This document shows, piece by piece, positions 24,150 to 47,230 of a DNA stretch of 64,000 nt. Below the pieces are notes generated by a model. It was not told where the DNA came from. It made no database searches and saw only the letters and a list, made by a program, of their open reading frames with translations. Both the position numbers and the translations under genes were made by a program. The DNA comes from Lepiota brunneoincarnata. Taxonomy: Eukaryota > Basidiomycota > Agaricomycetes > Agaricales > Agaricaceae. Positions within the stretch are counted from its first letter, which is position 1; the number at the start of each line of letters is the position of its first letter. Location: contig JAEBUN010000021.1 of the NCBI GenBank assembly GCA_023014365.1, positions 620,001 through 684,000 on the forward strand, read 5' to 3'.

Positions 24150-24395
24150 TGAGGAAGTGTGTAGCGACATGTGTGCTCCTTACCATTGTTTCCTCCGTTC
24201 CCAATACCTGACACCTCCTAGGGGGCAATGTCCACTCTTAGCGCACTTTTTCAGTTGTTTCTCTTAGCTACTATATTGACTCTCCTCCGCAATGTATTGT
24301 TGGCATGTCCAGATAATTTTATGTGACTCGTAGTATAAAAATGGGTGTCCAACACCCTGATATCCTAGTCGGTAGTCAACCCCCCATACACACAC

Positions 24396-26534: not shown

Positions 26535-26624
26535 ATAACCTCACTGCTGGCGTATCACTATATTCGAACGGTAGATATCCTTTACGGCCTGGCACCCATA
26601 AGTAAGGCTACATGGCAACAACAA

Positions 26625-26680
26625 TGTTAGAATACGAGTGTTCGTTAGCCTCAGAAACTCGTATGCGCGAGAACTGAGGC
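26625..26680 (-). repeat. LTR-end fragment related to copia element B
   Basis: About 55 bp starting TGTTAGAATAC match the block at 46,927 next to the gag start of element B, with differences mainly at CG versus CA/TG sites. The match stops after GAACTGAGGC. It is probably the outer end of a truncated 3' LTR of B or of a sister copy. Confidence 0.55.
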
Positions 26681-26693
26681 TTAGGGCTGCGCA

Positions 26694-26860
26694 CCGTGAC
26701 CGTACAGTACGGAGTAGACGGTAACCGTAGTACGGGTGCCGTACCCGTGCCGTTCAGGGTCAGCTCGACCACTCAGACGGACGGTAGACGGGACGGTCAT
26801 TGACCGTCCAATACCGTCCAAAGTACGGCCGTCCATGGCATTAGACGGCATTAGACGTTA
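26694..26860. repeat. CCGT/ACGG-rich tract
   Basis: Around 17 short CCGT or ACGG words in about 165 bp, many in inverted arrangement (for example CCGTAC near GTACGG, and GGACGGTC near GACCGTCC). No other part of the window has this density. Its origin is unknown. Confidence 0.6.
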
Positions 26861-26932
26861 ATCTCTGATTAAACTCTATTGTGACAGGATCAACATAACA
26901 AAGAGTCAAGGATGCTCACGGACCCCACCAAG

Positions 26933-27270
26933 TGTTGAACTGAGTAGAGTCAATAGTATCAGTGACACACTGATCACTAGTCACTAGCTCGAGTTGATCA
27001 ACAATCACTGATGTATTCACACATTGTTAATAATAGTGTGATTTGATAAGCCCACTGATTTGGTCAAGTGTAAAGGTTCTTTGTATGTAGCTCCCCTTCA
27101 CATAATAGGATTTGGCTAGTCTAAGGTCCCATCCTGTCAAAATGGACATGAGGCGTGAAACTCGGTGTCCACTAATTGACATCCCCAAGGGATGGGTGTA
27201 CATAACAACTAATTACTTATATATCATAATTTGTTACTAACTAATAAGTGATCTGTCACTTTATTTAACA
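26933..27270 (-). repeat. 3' LTR of copia element A
   Basis: 338 bp. Its outer end (TGTTGAAC, plus strand) abuts CCAAG; its inner end (..TTTATTTAACA, plus strand) adjoins the purine-rich tract. The last 17 bp recur at 43,102-43,118 as the truncated 5' LTR. Confidence 0.85.
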
Positions 27271-27370
27271 CAACCCCCTGACAGAACACTTCTTTAATTT
27301 GTGTAGTGGATCACCAATGCACAACCCCCTGATCCACTGCACACCTTCACTTATCCAACTTCCTATTCCA

Positions 27371-28757
27371 TCATTTCCTTAAACCTATAAGATCACAGAA
27401 CTTCTCCACCTTGACTTGGGCAAGAGGTTTTGTAAGCAGATCAGCTGGCATGTCATCAGTAGACAGGTGCTCAAGCTGTAGCTTTTTCATTGCCACCTTC
27501 TCCCTCAACCAATAATAACCCATGTCCAAGTGTTTCATCCTCCCATGGTGATCAGGGTTTTTGGCAACAGACATTGCGGACTGGCTATCAGTGTATAGTA
27601 CCGATGGGGCACATGGAGTATATCCAAGCTCTCCTAGCAATTTTTGCATCCACAGGATTTCTTTTCCAGCTTCATTTCCAGCCACATACTCTGCTTCAGT
27701 AGTTGACTTGGTGACTACAGGTTGAAGCTTGCTTCTCCAACACACAACCCCCTAACCCAGCTTCACCAAATATCCTGTTGTGGATTTGCGAGAGTCCTTG
27801 TCTCCTCCATGATCAGCATCACAATATGTCACAAACATCCTATCACCAATACTGGAATCAGATCCATATGTGAGCTTATAGTCCAATGTACCCCTTAAGT
27901 ATCGGAACAAGTGTTTAACAGCTGACCAATGAGCCATTCCAGGGTTAGCATTGAAGCATGCTAGTACCCCTACAGCATAAGCAATGTCCGGACGTGTTGT
28001 AGTGGCCAAATACATGAGAGAGCCAACAGCATTCATGTAAGGGATATTAACCATCTTTTGCTTTTCCTCTGGAGTTTTTGGACAGTCATCTAGTGTAAGG
28101 ACCTTATTAGGTATCATGGGTGTTGTTCATGGTTTGCACTCTGTCATTCCAAACTCTTCCAACTTCTTTAGAATATATTGACGTTGGGACAGTGTCAATA
28201 TGTGCTGTTGCCTATCTTGTTTGATTTCAACACCCAATAAGAACAATGTTTCACCTAGGTCCCTCAATTTGAAATGTGAAGATAATTCCTCCACAAACTG
28301 GTCCATTTTCTCAACAGATTTTGATGCAATTGTGATGTCATCCACAAACACGGGGACGATTACCCGTACATCATCCTGGGCATAGAGGTAAACTGATGGA
28401 TCACTGTGCAACCTATGGAAATTCATCCCTTCCATTACAGTTGCAAGTTTTTCACTCCACAGATGAGGTGACTGCTTTAACCCATATAGGGACTTGTTCA
28501 GTTTACAAACATACTCTGAACCCCCTTGCTCAAACCCTTCTGGCTGCTTCATATATACTTCAGCATCAATATCACTATTGATAAAAGCATGAGATATGTT
28601 CACAGTACGCAGATTTAGGTCTTCAATAGCAGCCAGAGCAAGTATAGTTTGGATGGTACTCTGATGCATAGTTGATGCAAAGGTTTCAAAATAATCTTGT
28701 CCTGGTTGCTGACTAAATCCCTTTGCTACAATACAGGCTTTGTAATGCTCTATAGAG
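27371..28757 (-). pseudogene. Copia A pol, reverse transcriptase and RNase H part
   Basis: Minus-strand frames continue the polyprotein cut by element C: CIVAKGFSQQPGQDYFETFA, VCKLNKSLYGLKQSPHLW, FVDDITIA (the usual Y/FVDD catalytic site) and FLLGVEIKQD. RNase H follows: TRPDIAYAVGVLACF, YCDADHGGDKDSRKSTTGYL and STTEAEYVAGNEAGKEILW, ending at 27,371. Stops at about 28,127 (TGA) and 27,750 (TAG) break the frame. Complete reading resumes at 41,764 on the other side of element C. Confidence 0.85.
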
Positions 28758-29106
28758 TGTCGAAACACGATCATTCAGCTCAACGATTGTTTATTGTTTT
28801 CCTTATTTCATATTCCCTCTTACCATGGACACTGTATGTACACGAATGAACAATTTTATTATACTACTAGGTTACAAGGTGTACTTTCATTCTAGCGTAA
28901 ATAGGAGTACATAGTTTTTCTTTCTCTTATTTAAGTAGCCTACCAAAACGGCCTAGGATCCAGTCTTCCTTACTGGATCCTAGGTGAGTAGTATGTTGCG
29001 TTGTGTCTCTGTTTAATATTGATCTAGTCTTCCTTACTGGATCCTAGTGATCCTATCTTATATATTCCATGTCCAATATATCTACTGTGCACTTCTATTC
29101 TCGTTA
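28758..29106 (+). repeat. 5' LTR of copia element C
   Basis: 349 bp, TGTCGAAA..CTCGTTA. Differs from the 3' copy at about eight positions, essentially all C/T or G/A changes at CpG sites inferred from the solo LTR at 49.5 kb. Contains two copies of CTTCCTTACTGGATCCTAG. Confidence 0.9.
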
Positions 29107-29118
29107 GGTTATGGGCCC
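29107..29118 (+). promoter_or_regulatory. Putative primer-binding site of copia element C
   Basis: GGTTATGGGCCC directly follows the 5' LTR and contains the gag ATG. The same 12-mer directly follows the LTR of copia element B (46,915-46,926), so it is conserved between families. Which tRNA it would pair with was not determined. Confidence 0.55.
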
Positions 29119-30618
29119 CGAGAGCGATTCCTCGTCTGTGACACTCCAGTTCCCCAAATTAAATGGTAGCAACTACTATGTTTGGTCCAACAATATGAAG
29201 GCTGCCCTCCAAGCTCGACTTCTCTGGCTTGTTGTAGAGGGCATGGAAGACTGCCCCCCTAAACCCTCTCTGAGGCCTCCTGTTGCTGCCGAAAACAAGC
29301 CACTCCTTACATCTGACCAGGGCTATAAGGATTGGATCCAATTGAAGCAGGATTACCTGCGTTGGTTGAAGTCTGATCATGCGGCTATGGGTTTGATGCG
29401 GGGAGCTATTGAGTTCGGCCAGCGGGAACACATTGCCAATGTTGACACATCAAAGGAGATGTGGGATCGTCTTCGCAAGATCCACATCACCGAACGCCAG
29501 AACATCAATGTTCACTATTACTATCAGGAACTCTATACCAAGAGATGGGACAAGCGTACCACCATGTCAGATCTCATCGGATCCTTCCTGAACCTCCGTC
29601 GCCGTATCACAGAAGCAGGCCAGAAGTTGGATGACATTCATGTTGTCCATGCTATCCTACTTTCCCTACCTCGCTCGACCATCTGGGATGTCGTCAAGCA
29701 GAACCTTTTGGATAAGGGAAAGTTTCTCACCTTGGATATGGTTACTGCCGAGCTTGTGTCCGTGCATGACCATGCTGAACGTGATCGCCTTGTTGAGGAG
29801 TCTGAGAAGAAGGTTAAGGCTGAGCAGTTGGCCCTGCTTGCCAAGTCGGTGGGGAATGGGAACTCTGGGAAGAAGGGAAAGAAGGGGAAAGGCAAATTGG
29901 CAAAGAAATCCACTACTCCTGCTTGCCCTCTGGATTCCGAATGTCATATCTGCCACCTAAAGGGACATTGGGCTCCTGAATGCCCTTCAAGGTCCAAAGG
30001 GAAGGACAATACCGCTAAATTGGGTGGATCCGCAAATATTGCTGTTGAGCAATTGAAACCCTCTGGCGATCGCGAGGTTGGAGTAATGTTGATGGCTTCA
30101 GCTGATGAAGCTGTCGCCTCTGGTATCTTGCTAGATTGCGCTGCCATGGCCCACATGTTCATGGATCGTGATTTCTTCATTTCCTACCAGGAGTCTGCTG
30201 ATGGTGAATATATCACGGTCGGTGGCCGTAATAGGGTCCCTGTTGCTGGCTATGGATCAGTTATGTTCCGTTCCATTCTTCCAAAAGGTCACATCAATAT
30301 AACCCTTCAGAATGTCCTTCACGTTCCTCGACTGGGTGCCAACCTTGTCAGTTTAGGTGTTTTACAACAAGGGGGAGCGAGCTACCACAGTTGTGGATTG
30401 AAAGAGTTGACACTCTCGAAAGGCAGCAATGAATTATTCCGAGCGGTCCTTGCAGGGTCAGCTGGTACATTGTATCATATCCAATGCACGAAAATCGGCA
30501 GCGATCTGGCTTACCTTGCTAAAGGGCAACTATCCATGCGTTTGTGGCATTGTCGTATGGGTCATTTAAACCCTTGGATCATCGACTCGATGCGCCGTGA
30601 TTTCCTTGTGAAAGGCTT
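29111..30618 (+). pseudogene. Copia C gag, protease and integrase start
   Basis: Starts at the ATG 4 bp inside the primer site. Gag region: FPKLNGSNYYVWSNNMKAAL, then YYQELYTKRWDKRTTMSDLI, a Lys/Gly-rich stretch and a zinc knuckle CHICHLKGHWAPEC. The protease region reads LLDCAAMAHMF where copia proteases normally have D-S-G-A, so the aspartate remains but the following Ser-Gly is lost. QNVLHVPRLGANLVSLGVL and LWHCRMGHLN follow (pre-integrase). The frame is cut after FLVKG by the gypsy element and resumes at 38,732. Confidence 0.85.
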
Positions 30619-31004
30619 TGTTACCCGGGTTAGGGGTTCGCTCTTGAGTAGCACGGTGTTCGACACAGGATGTCTATACAGACTTGGTCCTGTCCTACTA
30701 AGCGTGACTTGGAGACGACGGAGCACTATAGTCCAGCCGGTTTAAGGGCAAAGAGGTATAGGAGGCAAGAACTGTATAACACTAAGATAAGGATACAAGG
30801 CATTGTACTGTATCCTTATATACTTCTAAGTGTGGCTGTACTCCTACTATAATAATCCAGACCGGGGTAACTATGAGTCAGAGATAAGAGAACATGAGGC
30901 ATATACTAAGAATAGTCCTTCTGATGTACACTACTGATAGTTTCATAGTGACATGGGAATGTGAACTAAAAATAACTGTCCTTCTGATGTGGTTTCTGAT
31001 AACA
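30619..31004 (-). repeat. 3' LTR of the chromovirus
   Basis: 386 bp, TGTTACCC..TGATAACA in plus-strand reading. No difference from 38,341-38,726 was seen by eye. Confidence 0.93.
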
Positions 31005-31285
31005 TTAGGTCCGTTTCTAGAGTTGTTTTCCATACAACTCGTTAGTTTCCTTCTTCCGGGTATTCGGCTAAGTGATTTGGTTCGTAGTAGTCGATCTGGG
31101 GTAGGTCGGTGGAGTCTGGTCTGGGGGGAATGACGGGGGAGAAGGTAGGAGTGGGAGTTCTGTGAAGATCGAGTACGGCGGCGGTTTCTGGGGATGGGGG
31201 TTGTCCTGGGTAAAAGATATCATATAGAAGGCGTCTGAAATGGGGACTTTCGATTCTTTCTTCTGGTGGGGTGAGTTGGTTTGTT

Positions 31286-32410
31286 TCAGAAGGAACCGCA
31301 TGGTTCTCCTGTGATGTTTGACTCGGCCACGTCGTCGTAGCATTCCTCGTAATAATCGTCGTGGGTGAGATCGATGTATCGATGGTGAGTTGTGGGAACG
31401 GCCGAGGGACGGGTTGTAGGATTTCTGGAGTAGGGGGCGTGTCTAGTCTTTCGACTTGGGCATTCGGTCCGTTTATGGCGCGGTTGAAAGACGGCGCAAT
31501 GGGGGCATCTGTATTTGATGCAATCGTATGAGTAGTGTCCTGGGGCATATTGCTTGCATCTGAGACAGGCAAATTGGGGGCAATCCATGGCCCAGTGTCC
31601 TGTGTGTCTGCATTGGATGCAGACCGATCTGTCGGTGGTTCGGGGGTTGGTTCACTGGTGAATGGGGTTGGGGGAGTTCCGAACCGGGACATTGTTACTG
31701 GTGACGGTGTGGGTGGTGTCCTTGGTGGGGGTGAGAAGTCTGAAGGGATTTCTGATACTGGCGGGCTTTCTTCCCTTACTGGGGGCGGTGGTGATAATAG
31801 CGGCAGTGGTCGTCGTGGTAGTGGTGGGGATGGTTGTGGTGGGGGGCTGCGAGGTATGTACCTCATTTCGTTTGGGTAGGTTCTTCGACACCTCGGACAT
31901 GAGGCCCGATCTTGAGCGGAGAAGTCGCTCGAGTGATTCTGCCCAGGCACGTTGCGTATTGTACGCAGTAGCGAGAGCCTTAGTCTGTCGTACGTGGTGG
32001 GTATAGTCGTACCAGAGTTGTCGGTCGTATTCTGAAATTGGAGTGTGTTCCAATTTAATCGTAAAGGCTCCGTCGGTGGCAGCCTCGCGCAGATCTCCGT
32101 CAGAAGGGTGATCTGGTCCATATGATCGTACTCCAGCTGTATGGTATCTAAGGGAGGCGGCTGGGGCAGCTGTTGGTTCTGGAGTGTCGTTGGGGTCGGG
32201 GGTCTCGTCCCTGGGGGAGGCGTATGTTGCGGCGAAGGTGTGAGAGGGGGTGTAGGGAGATGGGGCCGGAACGGGAGTTGTTTGAAGTGTTGTATGTTCG
32301 ACGTTTGCATTGTTTATAATGACGACGGAGGATGATGAGGAGGTTGGTGAAGGTGTTGTTGAAAAAGGGGGAGTAGTTTGGGGGCGAGTGAGGTCGAGGT
32401 TCATGGGCAT
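31286..32410 (-). CDS. Third ORF after pol: Pro/Thr-rich protein with three zinc knuckles, one in-frame TGA
   Basis: ATG (32,410-32,408) lies two bases after the pol stop (TAAAGATG). The frame runs to 31,286 with a single TGA at 31,652-31,654 (about 375 codons). Composition: Thr/Pro/Ser-rich N-terminus, a helical central part (EYDRQLWYDYTHHVRQTKAL, WAESLERLLRSRSGL), then after the stop three knuckle-like motifs: CIQCRHTGHWAMDC, CLRCKQYAPGHYSYDC and CPHCAVFQPRHKRTEC. Such knuckles bind nucleic acid in Gag. An uninterrupted 422-codon frame (31,042-32,310) overlaps in another frame; it is Pro-rich and less convincing. The role is unknown; its position is where env-like genes sit in other retroelements. 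Confidence 0.6.
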
Positions 32411-32412
32411 CT

Positions 32413-35400
32413 TTAAGTACGTTTGTTGTGGGAGCGAAGTTGTCTTTGGTTGGTTCTGGTGGGTTCTTGTTCTTTCTGGAGAATTCCATGAGCTTCTTTA
32501 TACTTGGTCAAGTACTCTTTGGCGTTCTCATGAAGCGTTTCATCGGTGATCCATTCGTTCTCCGTGTGGGAGTATCCTTTCCATTTGACGTAGTATTGGA
32601 GTTTTCCACGATGTTGTCGGTGGTTTAGAATGGCTTCTATTTCGTACTCTTCTTCTTCATTGATGATGTCTGGTGGTGGTGGAGTCGGATGAGATCCGTA
32701 TGCTTCTGTTTCGGCGTATGGAGTTAGAAGGTTTCTATGGAATATTGGATGTATCTTCCATTTGATCGGAAGTTTTAGTTTGTAGGTGAGCGGCGATAGG
32801 ACTTCTGTGATAAGGAAGGGTCCTAGTCGTTTTGGGGATATTTTGTTGGAAATGAAGGGGAGTTTGAGGTTCTTGGCTTCTAGCCATACCTTTTGACGTG
32901 TTTCAAGGGGTTTGACAGTTCTTCTGGTTCTTTGTTTCATAATGTCGGCGGAGAGTTGATGTGCCGCGTGTGCTTCCTTTCTGGCATCATCGAGGAGTCT
33001 GATGCGTTCGTCTACTGATGGAAAGTTCGATGTTTCCATTACCGTGGGTATCGGTGGAGGGTTGTATCCCATGATTAGTTCAAATGGGGATTTCTGCCTC
33101 GAGGCATGTATTTTGGAGTTGTGTGCGAATTCGGTGATAGGGAGGGTTTCTGACCAGTCAAGGGGATTCCTGGTGCAGTATATGGCGAGATAGGTCTCGA
33201 TTTCTTGATTGTATCGTTCTGTGGAACCATCTGTCTGGGGATGGTATGCGGTTGAAAATGCCTGTTGGATGTTAAGGCGTTTGGCTAGCTGTCTGAGGGA
33301 GTTGGCGGCGAATCTGGGGTCTCGATCTGATATGATTTTGTCGGGTAGTCCGAATCTGGTGAAGACTTTTTCTATTAATAGTCGTCCGATGTCATCGGCG
33401 TTTGATCGATCTGAGGTTGGGATGAAAATTACCCCCTTCGTAAGGCCGTGGTCCACCACGGACAATATCGCATTATGGCCGGCGCTAGGCGGTAGACCGG
33501 TGATAAGATCCCATGAGATCTGAGCAAATGGGCGTTTAGATGCTGGTGGAGGGATCGGTTGAGTCGGTGCGTGATCCGGTCTGCGTATAATTTTATGTTG
33601 CTGACACTCTGGACAGCCTTTGACATAGTTCTTTATGAATGTTGACATTCCTGGCCAATACACTTCTTTCTTGGCGAGGCGGTACGTTTCCTGTTCTCCA
33701 GGGTGGCCACGTGTGGGGTGGTCGTGGTACCTTGCGATGACATCGCATCTGAGTTGGAGGTCCTCTGGAATGATGACACGTTCTTGGAACGTGAGGAGTG
33801 AACCGTTCGGGGTTGGAACTGTTCCGAAGTCCTTATCGGCGGTGTTAGGGTGGGCTTCTTTTAGGAGTTTGAACGCTTCGGTGGTTCTAGCGTCGTATTT
33901 TGGTGATTCTGTGATTCTTTCTTGGAGTTCTATGTCGACGGTGGCGATAAAGAGGCGTTCTGGGAGTACTGTGATCATGTTTTGATCTTCTATGTCAGCG
34001 GTGGCGACGAAGAGGTTATTTGGAAGCATGGTGATGTCTTCGTTATCGTTGTCCTCGTCAGGGATATGGTCTGGACGTCTTGATAAGGCGTCTGGTGCGG
34101 GGATCTTTGATCCTGGGACATGTTCTAATTTGAAGTTGTAGTCAGCGAGGGTTTGTACCCATCGTGCTTGTCGGCGGTTGATTTTCTGGGGTTTGCGCCA
34201 GTATGTGAGGTTTTGGTGGTCCGTTCTGATACGGACAGTATGGGGGCTGCCAAGGAGGTAGTGGCGCCATTCTTCGAGGGCTCGGATAATAGCGAGGAGT
34301 TCCCTGTCGTAGATGTCATAATTGCGTTCCGCTGGTCCGAACGTCTTTGAATAGAATGATACGGGTTTCCGTATTCCGTTGATGTCGTATTGATACAGGA
34401 CAGCTCCTGATGCGAATTTAGAAGCATCGGCTTCTATTTCGAAGGGTTTTGTGGAGTCGGGCATGAGGAGTACCGGTTCCTTTAAGAATTCGTTTTTGAG
34501 CGTTTCGAATGCTTTCTGTTGTTCTTCTTTCCATTCGAATTTGTTTGATTTAGAAAGGAGTTGGTTCAGGGGTTTGGTATGGTGGGAGTAGTTGCGGATG
34601 AACTTTCGGTAGAAGTTGCAGAATCCGATGAATTTCCGAATATGTCGGACTGTTTTTGGTACTGGCCAGTCTTCTATTCCCTTGAGTTTTCCGGGATCCA
34701 TTTTGATCTCGTCTGGCGTGATGATCATGCCGAGGTATTCGAGTCGTTGTTTGTTGAACTCGCATTTTTCCGTTTTAAGATAGAGATCGTTTTCCTGCAG
34801 GATTTGCAGTACTTTTTCCGTAAGTCGGTCGGTTTCTTCCTGGGTTTTACCGTAGATTAGGATATCATCCATGTAGATGATGATTCCTCCTTTCTCCATT
34901 ATTTCGGAGAATAGTGTGTCCATCATATGTTGGAACGTCGCGGGACTATTGCAAAGTCCGAAAAACATGACAGTCGGTTCGAAAAGACCCATGGGAGTCT
35001 TGAACGCTGCTTTCCATTGATCGCCATCTTTGATTCTGACGTTATTGTATCCTAGGCGGACATCGAGCTTAGTGAAGTACTTAGCTCCTTTGAGTTTATC
35101 CATGATGGAAGAAATCATGGGGATTGGGTAGGCGTTTTTGACGGTGTGATCGTTTAGATAACGATAGTCTTGGCAGGGTCGGAGGTCTCCTCCTTTCTTG
35201 GCAACAAAGAAGAAGGGTGATGCCATAGGGGATTTTGAGGGGCGGATGTAGCCTTTTCGGAGGTTTTCATCTATGAATTCCTTCAGCGCTTTTTCTTCGG
35301 CAGGTGCCACTTGATAAGGTTTCATTGATTTTGCTTCGAATGTCGGTTTTAGTTCGATTTCATGATCAAACGTTCTTGATGGTGGGAATCGTTCGGAGGC

Positions 35401-36072
35401 CTTCTTGTTGAATATTTTAGCCCATCGGGCAAATCTCCGAGGGATCTCGGGTGGTTCCTTGTTTGATTCCGGTTGTTTTCCTTTTTGGTTTGCCGATTTT
35501 GTCGGATTATGTTGCTCATTGTGGAGCGTTGTAGCGTGTGTCGCTTTGGCGTTTACTTCTAATGGGGTTAGAAGCATGGGGTTCATTTCTCTTTCTAGAG
35601 AGAAGGTGTCGAGGTCAACGTTTGACAGGTTGACGTATTCTTCGGGATTTTCCTCGGGTTGAGAGGTTTTTCCGGCCATTATGTCCATGGCGATGGAGTT
35701 GAGTTCGACAGGTCGTCGTAGGGTTCTGAGGAGTTTGGAAAAGTCTTGGTGATCGATTTGGGGTTTCCAAGAGAATGTCTTGGTCTTCCAGTTGATGTCG
35801 GGATTGTATTGTTCCAACCAGGGAAATCCAATGATGAGGTCCTTCTCACCAGTGTTTGTGACGTACGCTTCTAGCGTGCAATCTCTTCCATCGATGATGG
35901 TTCTGATTTTAATATATTCATGGATCTTGCCATGTTGATTGTCAGTTCCGTCAACGTTACTGAGTGGAATTGGTTGGTCCAGCCGTTTGGTTTGATAACC
36001 ATGTCGTTCAACGACTTTGTGGGAGATAAAGTTCCCTTGGGCTCCTGAGTCTATCAGGGCGGTGATGGCCAC
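32413..36072 (-). CDS. Chromovirus pol polyprotein (protease, RT, RNase H, integrase, chromodomain)
   Basis: About 1,220 codons without a stop. Protease site LIDSGAQGNF at the start, RT with IYMDDILIY (YMDD at residues 400-403), RNase H (FEIEADASKFASGAVLYQ, RELLAIIRALEEWRHYL), integrase zinc finger H..H..C-x2-C (HPTRGHPGEQETYRLAKKEV and GCPECQQHK) and DDE core (SWDLITGLPPS, IISDRDPRF, HPQTDGSTERYNQ). The C-terminal chromodomain (about 1,142-1,197) reads YEIEAILNHR and YYVKWKGYSHTENEW. The frame is open further upstream past 36,072 and overlaps the 3' end of gag in the +1 frame, so pol is probably made by +1 frameshifting; no ATG is needed. Confidence 0.93.
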   Translation of the reverse strand: MAITALIDSGAQGNFISHKVVERHGYQTKRLDQPIPLSNVDGTDNQHGKIHEYIKIRTIIDGRDCTLEAYVTNTGEKDLIIGFPWLEQYNPDINWKTKTFSWKPQIDHQDFSKLLRTLRRPVELNSIAMDIMAGKTSQPEENPEEYVNLSNVDLDTFSLEREMNPMLLTPLEVNAKATHATTLHNEQHNPTKSANQKGKQPESNKEPPEIPRRFARWAKIFNKKASERFPPSRTFDHEIELKPTFEAKSMKPYQVAPAEEKALKEFIDENLRKGYIRPSKSPMASPFFFVAKKGGDLRPCQDYRYLNDHTVKNAYPIPMISSIMDKLKGAKYFTKLDVRLGYNNVRIKDGDQWKAAFKTPMGLFEPTVMFFGLCNSPATFQHMMDTLFSEIMEKGGIIIYMDDILIYGKTQEETDRLTEKVLQILQENDLYLKTEKCEFNKQRLEYLGMIITPDEIKMDPGKLKGIEDWPVPKTVRHIRKFIGFCNFYRKFIRNYSHHTKPLNQLLSKSNKFEWKEEQQKAFETLKNEFLKEPVLLMPDSTKPFEIEADASKFASGAVLYQYDINGIRKPVSFYSKTFGPAERNYDIYDRELLAIIRALEEWRHYLLGSPHTVRIRTDHQNLTYWRKPQKINRRQARWVQTLADYNFKLEHVPGSKIPAPDALSRRPDHIPDEDNDNEDITMLPNNLFVATADIEDQNMITVLPERLFIATVDIELQERITESPKYDARTTEAFKLLKEAHPNTADKDFGTVPTPNGSLLTFQERVIIPEDLQLRCDVIARYHDHPTRGHPGEQETYRLAKKEVYWPGMSTFIKNYVKGCPECQQHKIIRRPDHAPTQPIPPPASKRPFAQISWDLITGLPPSAGHNAILSVVDHGLTKGVIFIPTSDRSNADDIGRLLIEKVFTRFGLPDKIISDRDPRFAANSLRQLAKRLNIQQAFSTAYHPQTDGSTERYNQEIETYLAIYCTRNPLDWSETLPITEFAHNSKIHASRQKSPFELIMGYNPPPIPTVMETSNFPSVDERIRLLDDARKEAHAAHQLSADIMKQRTRRTVKPLETRQKVWLEAKNLKLPFISNKISPKRLGPFLITEVLSPLTYKLKLPIKWKIHPIFHRNLLTPYAETEAYGSHPTPPPPDIINEEEEYEIEAILNHRQHRGKLQYYVKWKGYSHTENEWITDETLHENAKEYLTKYKEAHGILQKEQEPTRTNQRQLRSHNKRT

Positions 36073-36124
36073 GGGTTTTGATGTCCGTTCACTCCAAATC
36101 TCGATGGGTAGAAAAAGGGATCGT

Positions 36125-37969: not shown

Positions 37970-37981
37970 GGTGATATTTGT

Positions 37982-38311
37982 CTAGCGATCGATTATCGCT
38001 AGAAGTATGAAGAATTGGGTGGCGATTATGGATATCCCTGAATATAGATTCCACGATCTGACGACGCAACAGTGACAGGGGCACGTGATACGTTCGAGTT
38101 CTAGGGTGATGATTCGATAGGCGATGAGGGTGGCGGTAGAGGTGAAAACGAAAATGAGTAGGTAAGCCAGGTCTTCTGGCGGGGAGAGGTTGAGGGACGT
38201 AGCGATGGCTACACAGAGAGGCGGTTTTCTTTCGCACGTCGTTTTGAACGACCAGGGTACCTCGACGCGTTCAGTACGTCGGTGGAGTAGAGCAGAGTAG
38301 AGGGCGAGCAA
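37982..38311 (-). CDS. Small leader ORF with two hydrophobic segments, upstream of gag
   Basis: 109 codons from an ATG 17 nt past the primer site to a stop 12 nt before gag. Two hydrophobic stretches (LAYLLIFVFTSTATLIAY and ISIIATQFFILLAII) could span a membrane. A second frame of similar size overlaps it, so chance is a real alternative. No family recognised. Confidence 0.3.
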   Translation of the reverse strand: MLALYSALLHRRTERVEVPWSFKTTCERKPPLCVAIATSLNLSPPEDLAYLLIFVFTSTATLIAYRIITLELERITCPCHCCVVRSWNLYSGISIIATQFFILLAIIDR

Positions 38312-38327
38312 GAGATAAGCAGCAAAG

Positions 38328-38339
38328 TATCTTAGTGTT
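38328..38339 (-). promoter_or_regulatory. Self-priming primer-binding site of the chromovirus
   Basis: On the element strand AACACTAAGATA lies one base after the 5' LTR. It is a perfect 12-nt complement of TATCTTAGTGTT inside the same LTR (38,500-38,511), which is about 33 bp after a TATATAA box, where transcription should begin. This is the arrangement known from Tf1 and sushi elements. Confidence 0.75.
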
Positions 38340-38340
38340 T

Positions 38341-38726
38341 TGTTACCCGGGTTAGGGGTTCGCTCTTGAGTAGCACGGTGTTCGACACAGGATGTCTATA
38401 CAGACTTGGTCCTGTCCTACTAAGCGTGACTTGGAGACGACGGAGCACTATAGTCCAGCCGGTTTAAGGGCAAAGAGGTATAGGAGGCAAGAACTGTATA
38501 ACACTAAGATAAGGATACAAGGCATTGTACTGTATCCTTATATACTTCTAAGTGTGGCTGTACTCCTACTATAATAATCCAGACCGGGGTAACTATGAGT
38601 CAGAGATAAGAGAACATGAGGCATATACTAAGAATAGTCCTTCTGATGTACACTACTGATAGTTTCATAGTGACATGGGAATGTGAACTAAAAATAACTG
38701 TCCTTCTGATGTGGTTTCTGATAACA
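38341..38726 (-). repeat. 5' LTR of the chromovirus
   Basis: 386 bp. Element-strand promoter: TATATAA (in AGTATATAAGGATAC), then the inferred transcript start ATCTTAGTG about 33 bp later. Followed by duplicated target bases GGCTT on the outer side. Confidence 0.93.
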
Positions 38727-38731
38727 GGCTT

Positions 38732-41396
38732 GGACATTTACGCACCTCGTGAGTTCGACCATCTGTGCAGCGGTTGTGCGAATGGGAAGTCTCACCATCT
38801 GCCTATGCCTGACGTAAGCTCAAGCCGTTATTCCAAGATGGAACTGCTGGTACTTGACCTGACTGGACCAATGTCTGTTCCAAGTTGGGATGGGTATTTA
38901 TATGCACTCATCGTTGTGGAGGTGAGCTGCCGTTATCCTGTGGGTCGCCTCTTGAAGGATAAGGAAGGGGCCGGCGTCACTGTTCGGGATATTGTGGCCA
39001 TGTTGGAACGCCAATCTGGTCTGAAGACTCACCGTCTCTGAAGCGACAATGGGTCCAAATTTGTTAACTCTGCCATGAATCAATTCTGTCGTCGCAATGG
39101 CATCATTCACGAAACGACTATCCCTTACCTCCCTGAGCAAAATGGCATCGCTGAGCATGCCATCGCCATTTTCTTTGAGATGATCCGGTGCATGTTGCAC
39201 ACCAGTGGCATGAACCTGCGTTTCTGGGGCAAAGCTTTCATGTATGCTGTCCACATTCGCAGTTTAACACTCACCTCTGGTTTAAAGGGTATCACCCCTT
39301 ACAAGGCATGGACTGGACGCAAACCTGATGTTTCCCATCTTTGGATCTTTGGATCTCTTGGATGGGCTCATGTTCCCAAGCCGGTGTGTAAAGGCAAGTT
39401 GGAGTCGAGGGCAGTGAAGGTTCAGATGCTTGGATGGTGGACCGATGAGGCCAAGGGATATCGTCTTGAGGATTTGGAGAATGGCAAGTTGATTGCCTCT
39501 CGTGATGTCCAGTTTTACGAGGATGATGCCCCCAGCGAGTTAGCCATTGTGGATGTTGATGAACCGATGGTCTCACCTGAGACAGTTGATCGTTTGGTTG
39601 ACAACGCTGTTGCAGCGGATGTTCCCAAGCTTGGTCCAACCACCACTCTTCCCACGGCTGTCCCCCCAGATCCTGTGCCTACCGTTGACGTTGAACGTCC
39701 GGTTACCCCTCCCCATGAGTTTTCAAGTGGGAGCCTCCCTCAGCTGCCACCTGCATCTAGGAAATCCAATCGTGTACGCAAACCTGTCAAGCGCCTTGGG
39801 TTCTTGGCTATCGATGATATGTTTTCCTTAAATGGACGTGTGAACTTTGCTTTTGTTGCTGTCGCCGATGAACCTCGCACTTACCAGGAAGCCCTTCGTT
39901 CTCCCTACTCGAAGCAGTGGGAGAGTGCTATCAAGTCCGAGTTTGCTCAATTGAAGAGGGCTGGTGTTTTCAAATGGGTGGACGACTTACCCAGGGGAAA
40001 GAAAACAGTTGGAAGCCAAATTGTCTTCAAGGAGAAACTGGATGGACATGGGAAGTGAGTTAAGTTCAAAGCTCAGATCATAGCTAAAGGCTTCTCGCAG
40101 ATACCTGGAGAGGACTTCACCAAAACCTTCTCATCCGTCACCAAGTTCACCACTCTCCGCATTTTCCTCACCCTCGCTGCCTATTTAGACTTTGATATTC
40201 ATCAAGTCGATGTCGTCGCTGCCTACTTGCAAGGAGATCTTGACGAGGAGATATACATGGAGGTACCAGATGGTGTTGAGAAGTTGGGGACCGGAGGTCG
40301 TTATTGGAAGTTGCGAAAGGCCTTGTATGGTCTGAAGCAAGCTGGGAGGCAATGGAAGAAGAGATTACATGAAGTTTTGACTAAGCTCAACTTCATCCAT
40401 GCATTCGCTGATGACTGTTTATACATCAGACGAGAGAATGGGAAGATTACTCTCCTTGTACTTGTCTACGTCGATGACATGGCAGTCGCTGGCCCTGGTG
40501 GCACTTGCATTATCTTGTTCAAGACTGCCCTCAGCCAAGACTTCAAGATTACCAACCTAGGCGAGCTCAAATACATGTTGGGCATCCTTGTTACTCGGGA
40601 TCACCCCAACTGCCTCATTTACCTTAATCAGTCAGCATATATCCACCAAATCCTTGCCTGCTTTCGCATGCAGGATGCTGCTCCTGTCTCCACTCCACTT
40701 GCTGTGAAGCACGATCTCTCCACCTCCCATTCCCCCAAGACCAAAGCCGAGAAATGAGCTTACAAAGAATATGCAGGTAATATTCATTACCTCTCGCTTG
40801 TCGGCTCTCTCCTCTTTGCTACTCAGACTCGACTGGACATCCAGTTCACGCGCATTTTGCGCTATCTCAAGGGTACTGCAAATTTCCACCTTGTCTTGGG
40901 TAGGCGCAGGAACGATTCCTTCAATCTCGTTGGTTGGACAGACTCAAGTTGGGCCCAAGATCCTGATGATCAAAGGTCCGTTGGCGGTTTTGTATTCGAC
41001 GTGGCTGGTAGCTCCATCTCGTGGTCCTCAAAAAAACAGCCAACCGTTGCCACTTCCTCCGTCGAGGCCAAATATATTGCGTCTGCCAATGCTACAAAGG
41101 AAGCCATTTGGCTTCGTACCCTACTCAAGGAGCTTGATTTCCCACAGACGATGGCAACTGTCATTCACGCTGACAACCAGGGCTGTATTGCCCTCGCCAG
41201 TAATCCCATTGCTCATTCACGCGCCAAACACATCAACATACGACATCACTTTATCCGTGAACGTGTCAAATGTAATGAAGTCAGGCTCTGCTATGTCTCT
41301 ACGAAGGATATGCTTGCAGACATATTCACCAAAGCCCTCCCTCGCGATGCTTTTATAAAATTTTGCGCCGGTCTCGGTGTGGTTGCTCCCAACTGA
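38732..41396 (+). pseudogene. Copia C integrase, reverse transcriptase and RNase H
   Basis: Continues the frame cut by the chromovirus: HLCSGCANGKSH (zinc site), integrase core around LLVLDLTGPMSV, SDNGSKF and LPEQNGIAEHA, then KPDVSHLWIFGSLGW. RT: IIAKGFSQIPGEDFTKTF, VVAAYLQGDLDEEIYMEV, LRKALYGLKQAGRQW and YVDDMAVAG. RNase H: GWTDSSWAQDPDDQRSVGG, SSVEAKYIASANATKEAIWL and ADNQGCIALASNP. TGA stops at 39,039, 40,056 and 40,755 and a short deletion joining LDIQFT directly to RILRYLKG disable it. The stop codon at 41,394-41,396 lies 18 bp before the 3' LTR. Confidence 0.9.
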
Positions 41397-41414
41397 CGTC
41401 TCACTGAGTGGGAG

Positions 41415-41763
41415 TGTCGAAATGCGATTGTTCAGCTTGACGATTGTTTATTGTTTTCCTTATTTCATATTCCCTCTTACCATGGACACTGTATGTACAC
41501 GAATGAACAATTTTATTATACTACTAGGTTACAAGGTGTACTTTCATTCTAGCGTAAATAGGAGTACATAGTTTTTCTTTCTCTTATTTAAGTAGCCTAC
41601 CAAAACGGCCTAGGATCCAGTCTTCCTTACTGGATCCTAGGTGAGTAGTATGTTGCGTTGTGTCTCTGTTTAATATTGATCTAGTCTTCCTTACTGGATC
41701 CTAGTGATCCTATCTTATATATTCCGTGTCCAACGTATCTACTGCGCACTTCTATTCTCGTTA
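41415..41763 (+). repeat. 3' LTR of copia element C
   Basis: 349 bp. Near its start CpG sites appear as TpG, while the 5' copy has CpA at the same sites; the solo LTR at 49.5 kb keeps CpG. Confidence 0.92.
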
Positions 41764-43095
41764 TAGAGCCATCTGCATTGTGTTTAACCTTGAACACTCA
41801 TTTAGACCCAATTGCTTTCTCCCCTGGAGGCAGTGGTACAAGTGACCAAGTTCCATTTGTGAGGTAGGCATTAATCTCCTCTAGTGCTGCCTCATACCAT
41901 TTATCACCCTCACCATTTGGTTGCTCTAATGCCTCAGAGTATGACTGTGGTTCCATCTCTTGGCTAAACTGAGCATTCTGTTGCTCATCCTCTGATTCTG
42001 AGTCAGTGACCAGTGGTTTAGGCTCTCTATGCTTCCAATATCCTAATGGGTGTGCCACATTCCATTTGGGCTTTTGAATAGCAATTGGTCTAGAGTCAAT
42101 TTCAGGTTCACTTGGTAGGCCTTCTCTGATATCATCATCCAGTTCATCATTTGCTTCAACTTGTCCAGTTGGTGGTATTTGTACACATGGAGTCAATGGG
42201 TCAGTGAGTGGTACCAGGATTGGTTCAGGGGCTGGTAGAACAGGTTCTTTATCATTTATATCATTAGGTTGCAATTGGTGATGGAGAGGACCATTTAAAC
42301 CAACACGCTCATCAAACTTTGCACATTCACTGATAACTGTTTTCTTTGTAACAGGATTGTAAAATTTCCACCCCTTATATCCTTCAGGATACCCAATGAA
42401 TACACACTTTTCTATATGACTTCCAAGTGGTGACCTTTTATCCTTTTGGATATGGACATATGCGATACACCCCCAAACTCTAAGATGACTAACATCAGGT
42501 TTCTTGCCATACCATGCCTCATATGGTGTCATACTTGGTAGTACAGATGTGGGACAGCAATTCCAAACATGAACAAGTGCAGCAAGACATTCACCCCAGT
42601 ACCCCTTTGACAGATTAGCTTCTGAGATCATAGCTGTGATCTTTTCATTAAGTGTTCTGTTTGCTTGTTCAGCAACACCATTTTGTTGTGGCCTATTTCG
42701 CACAGTATATTGTCTAGCAATGCCACAATCATCAAGGAACTTGATAAAGTTTGATCCCATATATTCACCCCCTTTGTCACATCAGAAGGTTTTCAGAGTG
42801 TGTTCAGTTTGATTTTCTGCAAACATCTTAAACCGCTTGAATGCATCAAATACATCACTCTTTCTCTTTAAGGGTATGACAACCTGAAATCAAGAGAAGT
42901 CATCAATAAATGTAACCCAATAATTGAAACCACCCAATGATGTTACTGATACTTGGTGAAGATCAGAGTGAACAAGTTCCAATGACTGTGATGCTCTATG
43001 TTCTGAAGGGGGGAATGGGTTTGCATGCATTTTTCCTGCTAGACATGGCTCACAGATTGGATCAGGCTTCTCAGATGAGCTTACTGTCATTCCAC
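41764..43095 (-). pseudogene. Copia A pol, integrase part
   Basis: Minus-strand frames from the zinc-finger end of integrase (PICEPCLAGKMHANPFPPSE, LELVHSDLHQVSVTSLGG, NYWVTFIDDFS) through CDKGGEYMGSNFIKFL, RPQQNGVAEQANRTLNEKI, KKPDVSHLRVWGCIAYVH and IEKCVFIGYPEGYKGWKF to the linker before RT (YEAALEEINAYLTNGTW, PPGEKAIGSK). TGA stops lie near 42,892, 42,782 and 41,801. The part upstream (gag, protease, integrase H-H site) is deleted down to the LTR stub. Confidence 0.88.
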
Positions 43096-43101
43096 TAACT
43101 A

Positions 43102-43118
43102 TGTCACTTTATTTAACA
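43102..43118 (-). repeat. Residual 5' LTR of copia element A
   Basis: 17 bp identical to the inner end of the 3' LTR (TGTCACTTTATTTAACA in plus reading), with an adjoining shared ACTAACTA. Directly followed by target duplication CCAAG (43,119-43,123). Confidence 0.8.
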
Positions 43119-43123
43119 CCAAG

Positions 43124-44118
43124 GCCACAACATCAAACATCATTCGGGATGCATATGTACTGCATCACTATTTGGAACACAAACCATTCTTTTAAATTCC
43201 CTCATTGGCCTAACAAGGCCTGTTGATTTTTCCTCCATTTCGTCAGTGAGTGTGTCAAGCCCATGCGTTAGGCAGCTGCTGGTCCAAACACTTATGCTCC
43301 ACAAGTATGCTGGCTCCATTTTCAATGGGAGGCTTCATAATTTATCCTGCATTTTGAGTCTTGACCTTGAAAGCATGGAGATGGGGTTGAGTGGGAATGA
43401 CAAGGTTTCTCAGTGTCACCAACAAAATATTTTTACAGCAAGAAGATGGGATAAAATGCACCTCACCATAGTTGCGAAGTCTGACACCCCCCCTCTTGAC
43501 ATGTCAGATCAGCCTGCTCTAGGACCCGATGGCCAATTGCTCAACACATCCAAAATGGACTGGTACAACAATCCAGATGATAGCCACCCAATCCAACCTT
43601 GCTCTAATTGATAGCTTGCTGGAAAGGCAGTCAACTCTCATGTCACATGCCTACTTGAATTTGGAGGGACTCAAGTGTCCAAGGAAAAGGAACAAATCAT
43701 CAAGGACAATTCTGCTGTGCTATATGCAGGTGTATATACATGTCTTGTGTACTACCTTTTCTGAAACCTGATATTGTATTTTCAAAGCCAGAATGGACTC
43801 AGTTTGTTGCTATTGTTGTTATCTCGCATTTTCAGTAGATTGACTATCCATTAGACATATTCAATCCTCAGTTCATTCTTCTTGGCATCCACTCTTCACC
43901 CTAATGTCCAAAAGAAGGCCAAATGAAGTCATTAATCATGCCACTGTTGACCATACAAGTCTGTACTACGGCTGTACCTGTACCCATCCCATAGCCATTG
44001 AGGCTCTACTTATCAGACTAGATGGATGGCAGACAGGTCAACCATACCCATCACCTGACCATTGTTTTGACAGCCATACCCATCAGATGGTATGGTTTGC
44101 AGCCCTACTGAGGCTGCC
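43124..44118. other. Sequence between nested elements, unrecognised
   Basis: Short frames on both strands with no familiar motif. It may be the remains of another insertion into element B. Confidence 0.3.
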
Positions 44119-44536
44119 TGTTATCAGAAATCCCCTTAATGTCCCCTTATCAGAAGCCTCACCAGAAGGAACTCTTATCAGAAGCACCCAAAGTATATAA
44201 ATAGATAGAAGACCTATCATCCTGAAACAATCAGAAGTACCATCAGAACAATCTATACTTAGATAGATAAGGATATGACTCACTTACCTGGGTCCAGATA
44301 TATATAGTAGGAGCATAGCCACACATAGTAGTATATAAGGATACTGTACCATACCCTTGTATCCTTATCTTAGTGTTATAAAGTTCTTGCCTCCTATACC
44401 TCTTTGCCATAACCGGCTGGACTTATAGTGCTCCATCATCTCCAAGTCACACTTAGTAGGACAGGACCAAGTCTGTATAGACATCCTGTGTGCAAACTCT
44501 GTGCTACTCAAGAGCAAACCCCTAATTCGGGTAACA
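44119..44536 (+). mobile_element. Solo LTR related to the chromovirus LTR (opposite orientation)
   Basis: TGTTATCAG..GGTAACA, 418 bp. Its right two thirds match the reverse complement of the chromovirus LTR with many substitutions, including the TATATA box region and TATCCTTATCTTAGTGTTAT. The flanking five bases (CTGCC and AGGGA) do not match, so no target duplication is visible. Older than the full element. Confidence 0.75.
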
Positions 44537-44610
44537 AGGGATGCCTAAAGTAAGTATAGTCAAGAATGGGCTCAGGATAGGGTCATGCATGCCAGTGAGG
44601 GTTTGCATCT

Positions 44611-44790
44611 GCATCGGAGGGGTGTAAGAGGGAATTCCAAGTACTGGGGTGTCAGGGGACAGATTTCCGAGCATTGGGAGGCTGGGGATCGGATTTCTGA
44701 GTGCAGGAGGGCTGGGGATTAGATTTCCAAGTGCAGAAAGGCTGAAAATCGGATTTCAGGGTGCAAGAAGTCTGGGAATCAGAATTCCCA
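44611..44790 (-). repeat. 30-bp tandem repeat inside copia B coding remains
   Basis: Six consecutive 30-bp units (44,611, 44,641, 44,671, 44,701, 44,731, 44,761), the last five clear. On the minus strand the units read as ten-residue repeats such as SDPQPPNARK and SNPQPSCTQK. Confidence 0.85.
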
Positions 44791-46910
44791 ATCTGCAGTT
44801 GTGAGCAATGACCTGGAGTTCCCCTTACAACAACTGCCCTTTCCCCTCCACAGACCTTAGCCATCAGGAGTTGCATTGTCTTCACATATGTGCATGAATC
44901 ACAGAAAAAATCCACAGGCCCATCAGTATCTAACTTCAGCCCAGTAACCATCCCATTTTGCACAAGATTCAAGGCTGCTGCCAGCAAGATATGACCAAGT
45001 CAACAGTGTATCATATCAAGGGTAAGTGAATCCCCAACAGTATGTACCTCATCACCACTCTCCCTGAAGACTTTATAAAGCCCCCTTTCACTTCTTGGTA
45101 TCTCTGCTATGCATGCACCTCCAGGATCCCAAATAATACACTTCCCATTGCTGAACATAGTTGAGAATCCAGCATCATCCAAGCAGCCAATCGATACCAA
45201 GGTATATCCTGCCTCCAGGGAATACAGTACCTGTTAGGGGAAGTAAGAGCACTGGAACCAAGTTGATATTTGGGTGGCAAATACAATCAACACCCACACT
45301 ACTTATATACATAGAGGTCTGTGCACAGACTGGGTAGCCAAACACTATGTAGCTACTAGAATATAATGTACGCAAACAATATACAAACAACATTAGTTGT
45401 ATGTGGATCAGACTTGGGGATGGGGGTGGCCGAAGGCTGAGGCTGGGCTTAGGCATCAGGCATTGTCTAGAGAGGCCAAGCCCAGACACCCAACCACAGA
45501 CCCCTAGATATACCTTGCATAAGGGAGTGCACATAACGCTAGTCCCCTTACAGTACCTCACTGAGTCATAGTTGTGATGTGCTGTTGCCATTTGGTATGT
45601 TAATGATAATTTCTCCTTTACCAACTGCACTGAAGCACTGTTTATTTGCTGCACATAGAGGTTTTGCTGGGATGGCTTCAAAGGTACGGAATACATCACA
45701 GTACAAAGAGATGTGTCTGGACAATCCAGAATCAAAAACCCCTACTTGTACTTGCCCCTCACTGACCTTCACAACATCACCTCCTCTACTTCCTCATTCA
45801 TTGGTGCCACATAGGCAGATAAGCCATTACCATTATCCAGTTTTGGACCATCAGTATCCAGTTCATCCTCTAAGGCCATTATTTCTATGTATGTCATCAC
45901 CAAACAGATCACATTCCTTGGCTAGTTTGACTTCCAGCATGACAAAAGATTCATCTCCATCTTCCTTCTCCTTGACAGCATTCACTCCCCCTTTTGTTTG
46001 CTTGGGTTTCTCCTGAGCTGGTTTCTCACCATTGGCCTTTTTCTTCTTTGGGCATTCATTTTCCAATGACCAGGTTTGCCACATTTGTGGCATTTTCCAG
46101 GCATCCTGCCCTTCTTGCCATCACCTTTGACCCCCAGGGCATCATCACTGCCCTCAGCCTTAGACCCACCATGCAGTCTTCCAGCTGAGCATGACCTTTC
46201 CCACTTGTCAGAGATCATCATAATCAAGACATCTGGTTTGATAGTGAAGTTGAGATTGGCACGCAAGCAAGCAGCTGATAACTGAGCTGATGCATAGGAA
46301 GATAGCCACCTTGGTAAGGATTGGATAACTGTACTGCAATAATCATCATCACTGATTTGTACCCCTACTGATGTTAATTCAGCACACTTGGAGCAAAGCT
46401 CCCCCAGAAAAACTCAAACATCTCCCCTGTCCAAACATCACACTGTCATGAACTCACAATGCATCCTTGCCTGTGAGAAGGCACCTTTATATGTGTATTC
46501 CTTTGTGACTGCCTCCCACATGTCTGCCACAGATCCAAGTTCAGCTATGATGATCAACGTCAAGTCAGGAATCTGCTGGATGAGTAGGGACTGTGCAATG
46601 GATTTGTTATGCTCCCATATGTGTATGTCATTGAGGGAAACTGGAAATGTATGAGGGGGGGGTCCCTAGCCATGTCACCGTCGTCCTTATCCTTTTCCTT
46701 GTCACTGCTTGACTTGGACCTGACCTGCCTTGGTGCTGCCAACAACAAGGCCATAGGCTTTGGTTGTTCCAAGCTCCCATTGAAATGCCCCCATAACCCT
46801 TTTCCCTGGACTGCTGCCTTGAACCGCAATCAGAAGATTGACCAGTTCAATCCTGATAAGTCCAACTTGGGAACACTTTGGGGTAGCACATTGTTTATAG
46901 TAGTAGCCAT
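44652..46910 (-). pseudogene. Copia element B gag, protease and integrase start, decayed
   Basis: Gag ATG at 46,910 directly after the primer-like GGTTATGGGCCC (46,915-46,926). Gag reads LPQSVPKLDLSGLNWSIF, then after TGA LRFKAAVQGKGLWGHFNGS; a zinc knuckle CHKCGKPGHWKMNA follows (about 46,065-46,105). Protease site FDSGLSRHIS near 45,720. Then LVSIGCLDDAGFSTMFSNGK, GLYKVFRESGDEVHTV and the pre-integrase C-x2-C (FFCDSCTYVK) up to the tandem repeat. Frames shift repeatedly. RT and RNase H of this element are not present. It differs from element A, whose integrase start overlaps the same domain. Confidence 0.75.
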
Positions 46911-46926
46911 ACTGGGGCCCATAACC

Positions 46927-47230
46927 TGTTAGAATACAAGTGTTTCGTTAGCCTCAGAAACTTGTATGCACGAGAACTGAGGCTGCTGGTGATTCGAGCT
47001 ATGTTATTACAGAACAATAAAAGAGCAAGTAATTGTCCTGGTATTCTAGCTACCATTTACATAGGGATCAAGAGAGAAAAAAAGAAAAAAAAGATCGGGA
47101 GCCAAAACACCGGAAAGTGGGTCCAAGTAGTCAATGCTTGGACCCCCCGTTGCATTTCCAATAAACAATTCTGCGGAGGTGTTATTACCTTCAAGGTCTC
47201 CTGTCCTCGTGCCGTTTGTGAGTGATAACA
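46927..47230 (-). repeat. 5' LTR of copia element B (outer limit inferred)
   Basis: The inner end TGTTAGAATAC (46,927) adjoins the primer site. The outer end is placed at GATAACA (47,230) because it mirrors the TGTTA..TAACA pattern and because the duplicated 47.24-kb repeat starts just after. No matching target duplication was found. Confidence 0.45.

What the first reader, a model, noticed from the sequence alone, without database searches (positions are those of the whole stretch)
26625..47230. Three to four retroelements nested in order, each with its target duplication
The gypsy chromovirus (GGCTT) sits in copia C (TAGAG), which sits in copia A (CCAAG). A lies between an LTR-like fragment and the remains of copia B. 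Three of the duplications are read exactly, and coding frames rejoin across each insertion (C gag-pol across GGCTT, A pol across TAGAG). The order gives a relative insertion history. The outermost B relation is less certain.
Basis: seen in the sequence. Interest (0 to 1): 0.75.

Follow-up and report, generated by a model that had tools for sequence, protein, structure and literature searches.

The report
Five-deep nest of fungal jumping genes
A 20.5-kb stretch of a fungal chromosome is one old mobile element into which four more inserted in turn, like Russian dolls; the order can be read base by base, but nests of this kind are common and none of the parts is of a new kind.

Summary
Five elements are nested, each with an exact target duplication: copia B (AACAA) > a hAT-like DNA transposon X (8 bp, CTGAGGCT) > copia A (CCAAG) > copia C (TAGAG) > chromodomain gypsy G (GGCTT).

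Copies elsewhere in the same genome hold unoccupied sites with one copy of the duplication: 24 of 29 A-family loci for C in A, three C insertions for G in C, two X relatives for A in X. For X in B and for B itself no unoccupied site was found; these rest on the duplications and on ends fixed by homologs.

A lost 1,799 bp through a 9-bp repeat, with most of its 5' LTR, but keeps both termini. B also took a gypsy LTR with non-matching flanks and two more LTR pieces.

LTR dating fails here: all 10 differences between the C LTRs are CpG-type. CpG loss is strong right of A and nearly absent in the 300 bp left of it. Ordinary in kind.

The parts
26625..47163 (-). Copia B, outermost element (span with all inserts); duplication AACAA at 26620-26624 and 47164-47168
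   Evidence: Ends as in solo LTR L070 and copy L071; duplication exact
26625..26681 (-).
   Evidence: 100% identical to L070
26682..44107 (.). hAT-like transposon X (span with inserts); own sequence 26682-26932 and 43124-44107, 1,235 bp; duplication CTGAGGCT 26674-26681 and 44108-44115
   Evidence: Ends TAGGGCTG/CAGCCCTA; relative L076 has its own 8-bp duplication TTGCCAAC
26933..43118 (-). Copia A (span with inserts); own sequence 26933-28757 and 41769-43118, 3,175 bp; duplication CCAAG 26928-26932 and 43119-43123
   Evidence: Copy L069; unoccupied X sites in L076 and L084
26933..27270 (-). A, 3' LTR (338 bp)
   Evidence: Match to both LTRs of L069
43102..43118 (-). A, deletion junction: 9-bp repeat TGTCACTTT (43102-43110) and the last 8 nt of the LTR end; 1,799 bp missing
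   Evidence: junction found once in the genome
28758..41763 (+). Copia C (span with insert); LTRs 28758-29106 and 41415-41763; duplication TAGAG 28753-28757 and 41764-41768
   Evidence: unoccupied site in 24 of 29 A loci
29108..30618 (+). C, gag and start of pol, no in-frame stop
   Evidence: Pfam gag and Pol_BBD
38727..41396 (+). C, rest of pol: integrase, SH3, reverse transcriptase; stops at 39039, 40056, 40755
30619..38726 (-). Gypsy G with chromodomain, innermost; LTRs 30619-31004 and 38341-38726, identical; duplication GGCTT 30614-30618 and 38727-38731
   Evidence: unoccupied site in L073, L074, L086, L088
32413..36282 (-). G pol: protease, RT, RNase H, integrase, chromodomain
   Evidence: Pfam
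36125..37981 (-). G gag
   Evidence: Pfam Retrotrans_gag
44116..44118 (-). Three further bases of B's left LTR between X's duplication and G2
   Evidence: GCC as in L070
44119..44536 (+). G2: complete 418-bp LTR of a gypsy family related to G; flanks CTGCC and AGGGA do not match
44537..44829 (.). H: end part of another LTR; its start is missing
   Evidence: Copies L081-L083 continue to the left
44835..46926 (-). B, remaining interior (interrupted at 45232-45552)
   Evidence: 74% and 85% identity to L071
45232..45552 (.). 321-bp LTR-like insert in B, TGTTAGGG..CCCTTACA, duplication GTACC 45227-45231 and 45553-45557
   Evidence: absent from L071
46927..47163 (-). B, right (5') LTR

Best explanation
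Serial insertion of five mobile elements. Copia B inserted first (AACAA). A non-autonomous hAT-like transposon X then inserted in B's left LTR (CTGAGGCT), copia A in X (CCAAG), copia C in A's pol (TAGAG) and gypsy G in C's pol (GGCTT). On the side, B's left LTR took a gypsy LTR, G2, three bases from X's duplication. The rest of that LTR, about 2.6 kb of B's interior and the start of an H LTR were lost, most likely by recombination between two G2 insertions. A lost 1,799 bp through a 9-bp direct repeat. Shown: the five duplications, the order, and unoccupied sites for the three inner steps. Inferred: that each element moved by its family's usual machinery (integrase for the LTR elements, a transposase supplied in trans for X), the G2 recombination, and that the CpG decay of the older layers comes from cytosine methylation.
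For: Exact duplications at all five levels with ends fixed independently. Unoccupied sites with a single duplication: C in A, 24 of 29 A loci outside the window; G in C, four loci at three insertion sites with duplications GCAGG, ATTAA and CAGCC; A in X, L076 and L084 of three relatives tested, the third (L085) matching the left flank only. A's length is exactly 4,974 - 1,799 = 3,175 bp. Phases agree. LTR differences 0 of 386 for G and 10 of 349 for C do not contradict the order.
Against: No unoccupied site for X in B or for B was found; the left flank 26493-26624 had no match elsewhere. Only 68 bp of B's left LTR remain, counting both sides of X and the second copy of its duplication. B's left piece is 100% identical to L070 and 94.7% to B's own right LTR, though all 3 differences are CpG-type. 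Of 29 A loci, 2 match the left flank only and 3 match neither flank. No reads were available, so a chimeric assembly is not excluded directly.
Confidence: 0.92

Rival explanations
1. B does not enclose the nest: the left LTR piece with X is one insertion and the right-hand B remains are another, brought side by side by deletion or rearrangement.
For: The left piece is closer to L070 (100%) than to the right LTR (94.7%); about 2.6 kb of B's interior is missing between them.
Against: AACAA flanks both outer ends (chance about 0.001). The 3 differences between the two LTR pieces are CpG-type, and CpG decay differs between the two sides of A in X as well.
Confidence: 0.08
2. The junctions are assembly errors joining unrelated repeats.
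For: The families are repeated in this genome, and no reads were available.
Against: Misjoins would not leave exact duplications of 5, 5, 5, 8 and 5 bases at element ends, nor flanks that meet with the same 5-base overlap in other copies.
Confidence: 0.01
3. G2's unequal flanks come from a plain deletion beside a single G2 insertion, not from recombination between two G2 insertions.
For: Parts of B and H are missing next to it; no second G2 site is left to see.
Against: The G2 LTR is complete at both ends (418 bp, like its relatives); a random deletion would rarely stop exactly at an LTR end.
Confidence: 0.2

Closest known systems
Nested transposon clusters, as resolved by REANNOTATE (PMC2672092; passages read)
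   Same: Order of insertion follows from containment; described there as observed in diverse eukaryotic genomes.
   Different: Here the order is backed by unoccupied sites in the same genome for three steps; five levels with a DNA transposon in the chain.
Basidiomycete chromodomain gypsy elements (clades such as MarY1, Laccy1, Tcn2; PMC2864245, passages read)
   Same: G has RT, RNase H, integrase and a C-terminal chromodomain; named relatives at 55% identity or more in RT-RNase H are mushroom-type fungi.
   Different: Clade not determined; no tree was made. Primer site looks self-priming.
Ty1/copia retrotransposons
   Same: C and A have integrase before reverse transcriptase, and 5-bp duplications.
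   Different: C's LTR ends in TA instead of CA, as does B's.
hAT DNA transposons
   Same: 8-bp duplications in two copies and short inverted ends TAGGGCTG/CAGCCCTA; the hAT rule itself is recalled.
   Different: 1,235 bp; no Pfam domain in the one ORF tested, so assigned by structure only.

Membership tests
Nested transposon insertion | Exact target duplication at each element's ends | tested here: met
   5 of 5 levels
Nested transposon insertion | Unoccupied site with a single duplication | tested here: met
   Met for G in C, C in A, A in X; not found for X in B and for B
Ty1/copia (A, C) | Integrase before reverse transcriptase; 5-bp duplication | tested here: met
Ty1/copia (B) | Copia domains in the coding remains | not tested
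   No Pfam hit in the two B-region ORFs tested (45175-45741, 45543-46016); filed by LTR form, primer site and 5-bp duplication only
Chromodomain gypsy (G) | RT, RNase H, integrase, then chromodomain | tested here: met
Self-priming gypsy, Tf1 type (G) | Primer site complementary to the element's own LTR | tested here: met
   12 nt complementary to LTR positions 216-227
Self-priming gypsy, Tf1 type (G) | The complementary stretch lies at the start of the transcript | not testable with these tools
   Transcript start unknown
hAT transposon (X) | 8-bp duplication and short inverted ends | tested here: met
   Window CTGAGGCT, L076 TTGCCAAC
hAT transposon (X) | Encodes a hAT transposase (autonomous members) | tested here: inconclusive
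   ORF 43117-43611 has no Pfam hit; no autonomous relative was looked for
Half-tRNA primed copia | Primer site complementary to the anticodon loop of initiator tRNA-Met | tested here: inconclusive
   A, B and C share GGTTATGGGCCCC after the LTR; the recalled tRNA pattern has 0 exact matches in this genome

The most novel reading that the evidence does not exclude
The CpG decay in the nest records a methylation boundary older than copia A. Within the single element X, CpG-type sites are intact left of A's insertion point, half lost in the first 150 bp right of it and mostly lost beyond, as if a gradient had been laid down along the unbroken X and then split by A. The nest order would then date a chromatin boundary.
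Probability: 0.3. Interest if true: 0.5.

Novelty: new member of a known kind. Interest (0 to 1): 0.3.

Why it matters
It gives a strictly ordered insertion history in a fungal genome, against which molecular clocks can be checked. The check is instructive: all differences between the C LTRs are CpG-type, and two copies of one C insertion whose flanking bases (about 100 bp) are identical differ at 158 positions, 139 of them CpG-type. Plain LTR dating would overstate ages in this genome. The CpG asymmetry inside one transposon is a testable trace of an old or present methylation boundary.

Tried and rejected
Rejected: A as an element without a right end. It ends in the true LTR terminus, reached through a 9-bp repeat.

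Rejected: 44119-44829 as the 5' end of one gypsy element. Three copies of its second half (L081-L083) continue to the left with other sequence, so it belongs to a separate LTR.

Rejected: L073 and L074 as independent unoccupied sites. Their flanks are identical, so further copies were fetched; L086 and L088 hold the site, L087, cut at a guessed offset of the same copy as L088, matched neither flank.

Led nowhere: tRNA and Rfam scans (0 hits); the recalled initiator-tRNA pattern (0 matches); Pfam on ten other ORFs of the window (1 hit); paper searches for half-tRNA priming in fungi (0 papers), for LTR dating and CpG (3 papers listed, none read), for CpG depletion in mushrooms (12 of 892 listed, none read).

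Not resolved: whether X or G2 entered B first; whether A was deleted before or after it inserted; the clade of G; the species.

Full report
WHAT IS THERE. The window is part of a 55.6-Mb assembly in 95 contigs (G000:C16:620001-684000). Among the 120 listed relatives of G's RT-RNase H, those with a given organism at 55% identity or more are Lyophyllum, Agaricus, Candolleomyces, Coniferiporia and Antrodiella; named animals, a green alga and an ascomycete (Berkeleyomyces) lie at 40-46%. That the genome is from an agaricomycete is inference. Self-comparison shows two LTR pairs: 30619-31004/38341-38726 (identical) and 28758-29106/41415-41763 (10 differences in 349). Pfam finds a gypsy pol with a C-terminal chromodomain on the minus strand inside the first pair, and copia domains on both sides of it on the plus strand. 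Further out, on the minus strand, lie the two halves of another copia pol: reverse transcriptase in 28127-28774 and the integrase SH3 domain in 41798-42781.

G IN C. GGCTT stands at both ends of G. The two 150-bp flanks, searched apart, meet with a 5-base overlap GGCTT in L073 and L074 and in L086 and L088. L073 and L074 have identical flanks and the same duplication GCAGG; the copies around L086 and L088 have CAGCC and ATTAA. So four loci stand for three insertions. In L073 and L074 one reading frame runs through the site, and the window pieces are in phase with it; in the window that frame has stops at 39039, 40056 and 40755 before its end at 41394.

C IN A. TAGAG stands at both ends of C. 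Of the 30 loci fetched for the A family one is the window itself. Of the other 29, 24 hold an unoccupied site with a single TAGAG, 2 (L045, L064) match the left flank only, and 3 (L053, L063, L065) match neither. L069 repeats the place of L040 and is not counted.

A IN X, AND A'S DELETION. A starts at 26933 after CCAAG. Copy L069 is 4,974 bp with 338-bp LTRs. In the window the match to L069 breaks off at 43110, but the next bases are the outer end of the LTR. TGTCACTTT occurs in L069 inside the element and again 17 bases before its right end; the window copy jumps from one to the other, loses 1,799 bp (the gag side, the primer site and most of the 5' LTR) and keeps 3,175 bp, exactly the difference. 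CCAAG follows at 43119. The junction occurs once in the genome at up to 3 mismatches. The sequences left and right of A meet with a single CCAAG in L076 (91% identity on both sides) and in L084 (82% left; right in two pieces, 83% over 24 bp and 78% over 99 bp); a third relative, L085, matches the left flank only.

X IS HAT-LIKE. In L076 the same element is flanked by TTGCCAAC on both sides; in the window by CTGAGGCT. The ends are TAGGGCTG and CAGCCCTA. Eight-base duplications and such ends are those of hAT transposons (recalled). X is 1,235 bp without its insert and the one ORF tested has no Pfam domain. Its right part has 7 matches in the genome including itself.

X IN B, AND B. The 57 bases left of X are the start of a B-family LTR, 100% identical to L070; after the right CTGAGGCT three more bases follow as in L070. 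L070 is a solo LTR with its own duplication AGACC and the end CCAATA; L071 is a B copy with two LTRs and the duplication AATAA. With these ends B runs from 26625 to 47163, flanked by AACAA on both sides. So the left fragment and the right remains are one insertion, and the 20,539 bp grew inside it. The left flank 26493-26624 has no match elsewhere, so no unoccupied site could be compared. B's coding remains gave no Pfam hit in the two ORFs tested; it is called copia from its LTR form, its primer site and the 5-bp duplication.

SIDE EVENTS IN B. G2, a complete 418-bp LTR of a family related to G, stands 3 bp right of X's duplication; its flanks CTGCC and AGGGA differ. To its right follows the end part of another LTR (H, 44537-44829); the three copies read continue to the left. 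After H come ACAAC and then B's interior, matching L071 from position 3179, so about 2.6 kb of B's interior and most of its left LTR are missing. Recombination between a G2 in B's LTR and a G2 in the H LTR would explain this; it is inferred. A 321-bp LTR-like insert with the duplication GTACC sits at 45232-45552.

CLOCKS. G: 0 of 386 LTR differences. C: 10 of 349, all 10 within 6 CpG-type dinucleotides. In other copies, L073 has 8 differences (7 CpG-type), L074 5 (4 CpG-type), L071 21 (17 CpG-type), L069 0 of 338. L073 and L074, one insertion in two places, differ at 158 of 4,938 aligned positions, 139 of them CpG-type. CpG sites therefore change far faster than others here, and LTR distance is mostly a count of CpG decay. 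CpG observed/expected: G 1.03; C 0.62 and 0.68 (copies elsewhere 0.67 and 0.68, so C as a whole is not decayed); A 0.18 and 0.07 (L069 0.30); X right 0.15 but X left 1.22; B right 0.14 (L071 0.46, L070 1.43); G2 0.12 (L077 0.06, L078 0.46, L080 0.22). So the ladder of CpG values across the nest is only partly decay: A and G2 belong to families that are CpG-poor anyway. CpG methylation of repeats is reported for mushrooms: Marasmius oreades, PMC9674265 (passages read); review PMC7862722 (passages read).

AN ASYMMETRY. Against L076 and L070, CpG-type sites lost in the window are 1 of 23 in X left of A and 30 of 37 in X right of A, 0 of 5 in B's left LTR piece and 11 of 17 in its right LTR (counts; Fisher tests: p about 2e-9 and 0.035). 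Sites that decayed alike in both copies cannot be seen. Other divergence of the two X parts from L076 is 2.0% in both, so this is not a difference in age. X's left part is not protected as such: it is decayed in L076 and L085 and intact in L084. Either decay stopped at A's left LTR, or a gradient existed before A came. The first 150 bp right of A have lost 3 of 6 sites against 27 of 31 further on (p 0.07), which hints at the second; the sample is small.

PRIMER SITES. One base after G's LTR, 12 nt are complementary to positions 216-227 of its own LTR; by chance about 386/4^12, or 2e-5 (my arithmetic). Copy L080 shows the same site after its LTR. This is what self-priming elements look like (mechanism mentioned in PMC2864245, passages read). 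A, B and C share GGTTATGGGCCCC directly after the LTR, which I recall as complementary to the anticodon loop of initiator tRNA-Met; the pattern search for that loop gave no match.

JUDGEMENT. Nested insertions are common across eukaryotes (PMC2672092). Nothing here is a new kind of element. The useful extras are the strict order, the failure of LTR dating under CpG decay, and the CpG asymmetry.

Noticed in passing
26625-26932 against 43119-44107 and 46927-47163: CpG sites intact left of A, mostly lost right of A, within the same transposon and the same LTR family.
   Followed up: partly
L073 (C88:5850-10920) and L074 (C14:2904280-2909350): One C insertion in two contigs: about 100 flanking bases identical, element different at 158 positions, 139 CpG-type. 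Alleles or a duplication; strong CpG decay either way.
   Followed up: partly
49502-49851: Solo LTR of the C family, minus strand, duplication ATCAT.
   Followed up: yes
24300-25914: Repeat family with a sharp edge at 25914 in many copies; a tnp2 transposase domain lies upstream at 21168-23357.
   Followed up: no
25915-26499, 52166-52752, 63657-64000: Three copies at about 80% identity of an unidentified segment on this contig; the right flank also has partial copies along C16.
   Followed up: no
L072 (C1:474000-480500): A relative of G (about 95%) ends exactly at a B-family interior there: another gypsy in a copia B.
   Followed up: no
38328-38340 and G LTRs: G's primer site is complementary to its own LTR, a self-priming signature.
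   Followed up: partly
59961-60509: ORF with part of a eukaryotic aspartyl protease domain.
   Followed up: no
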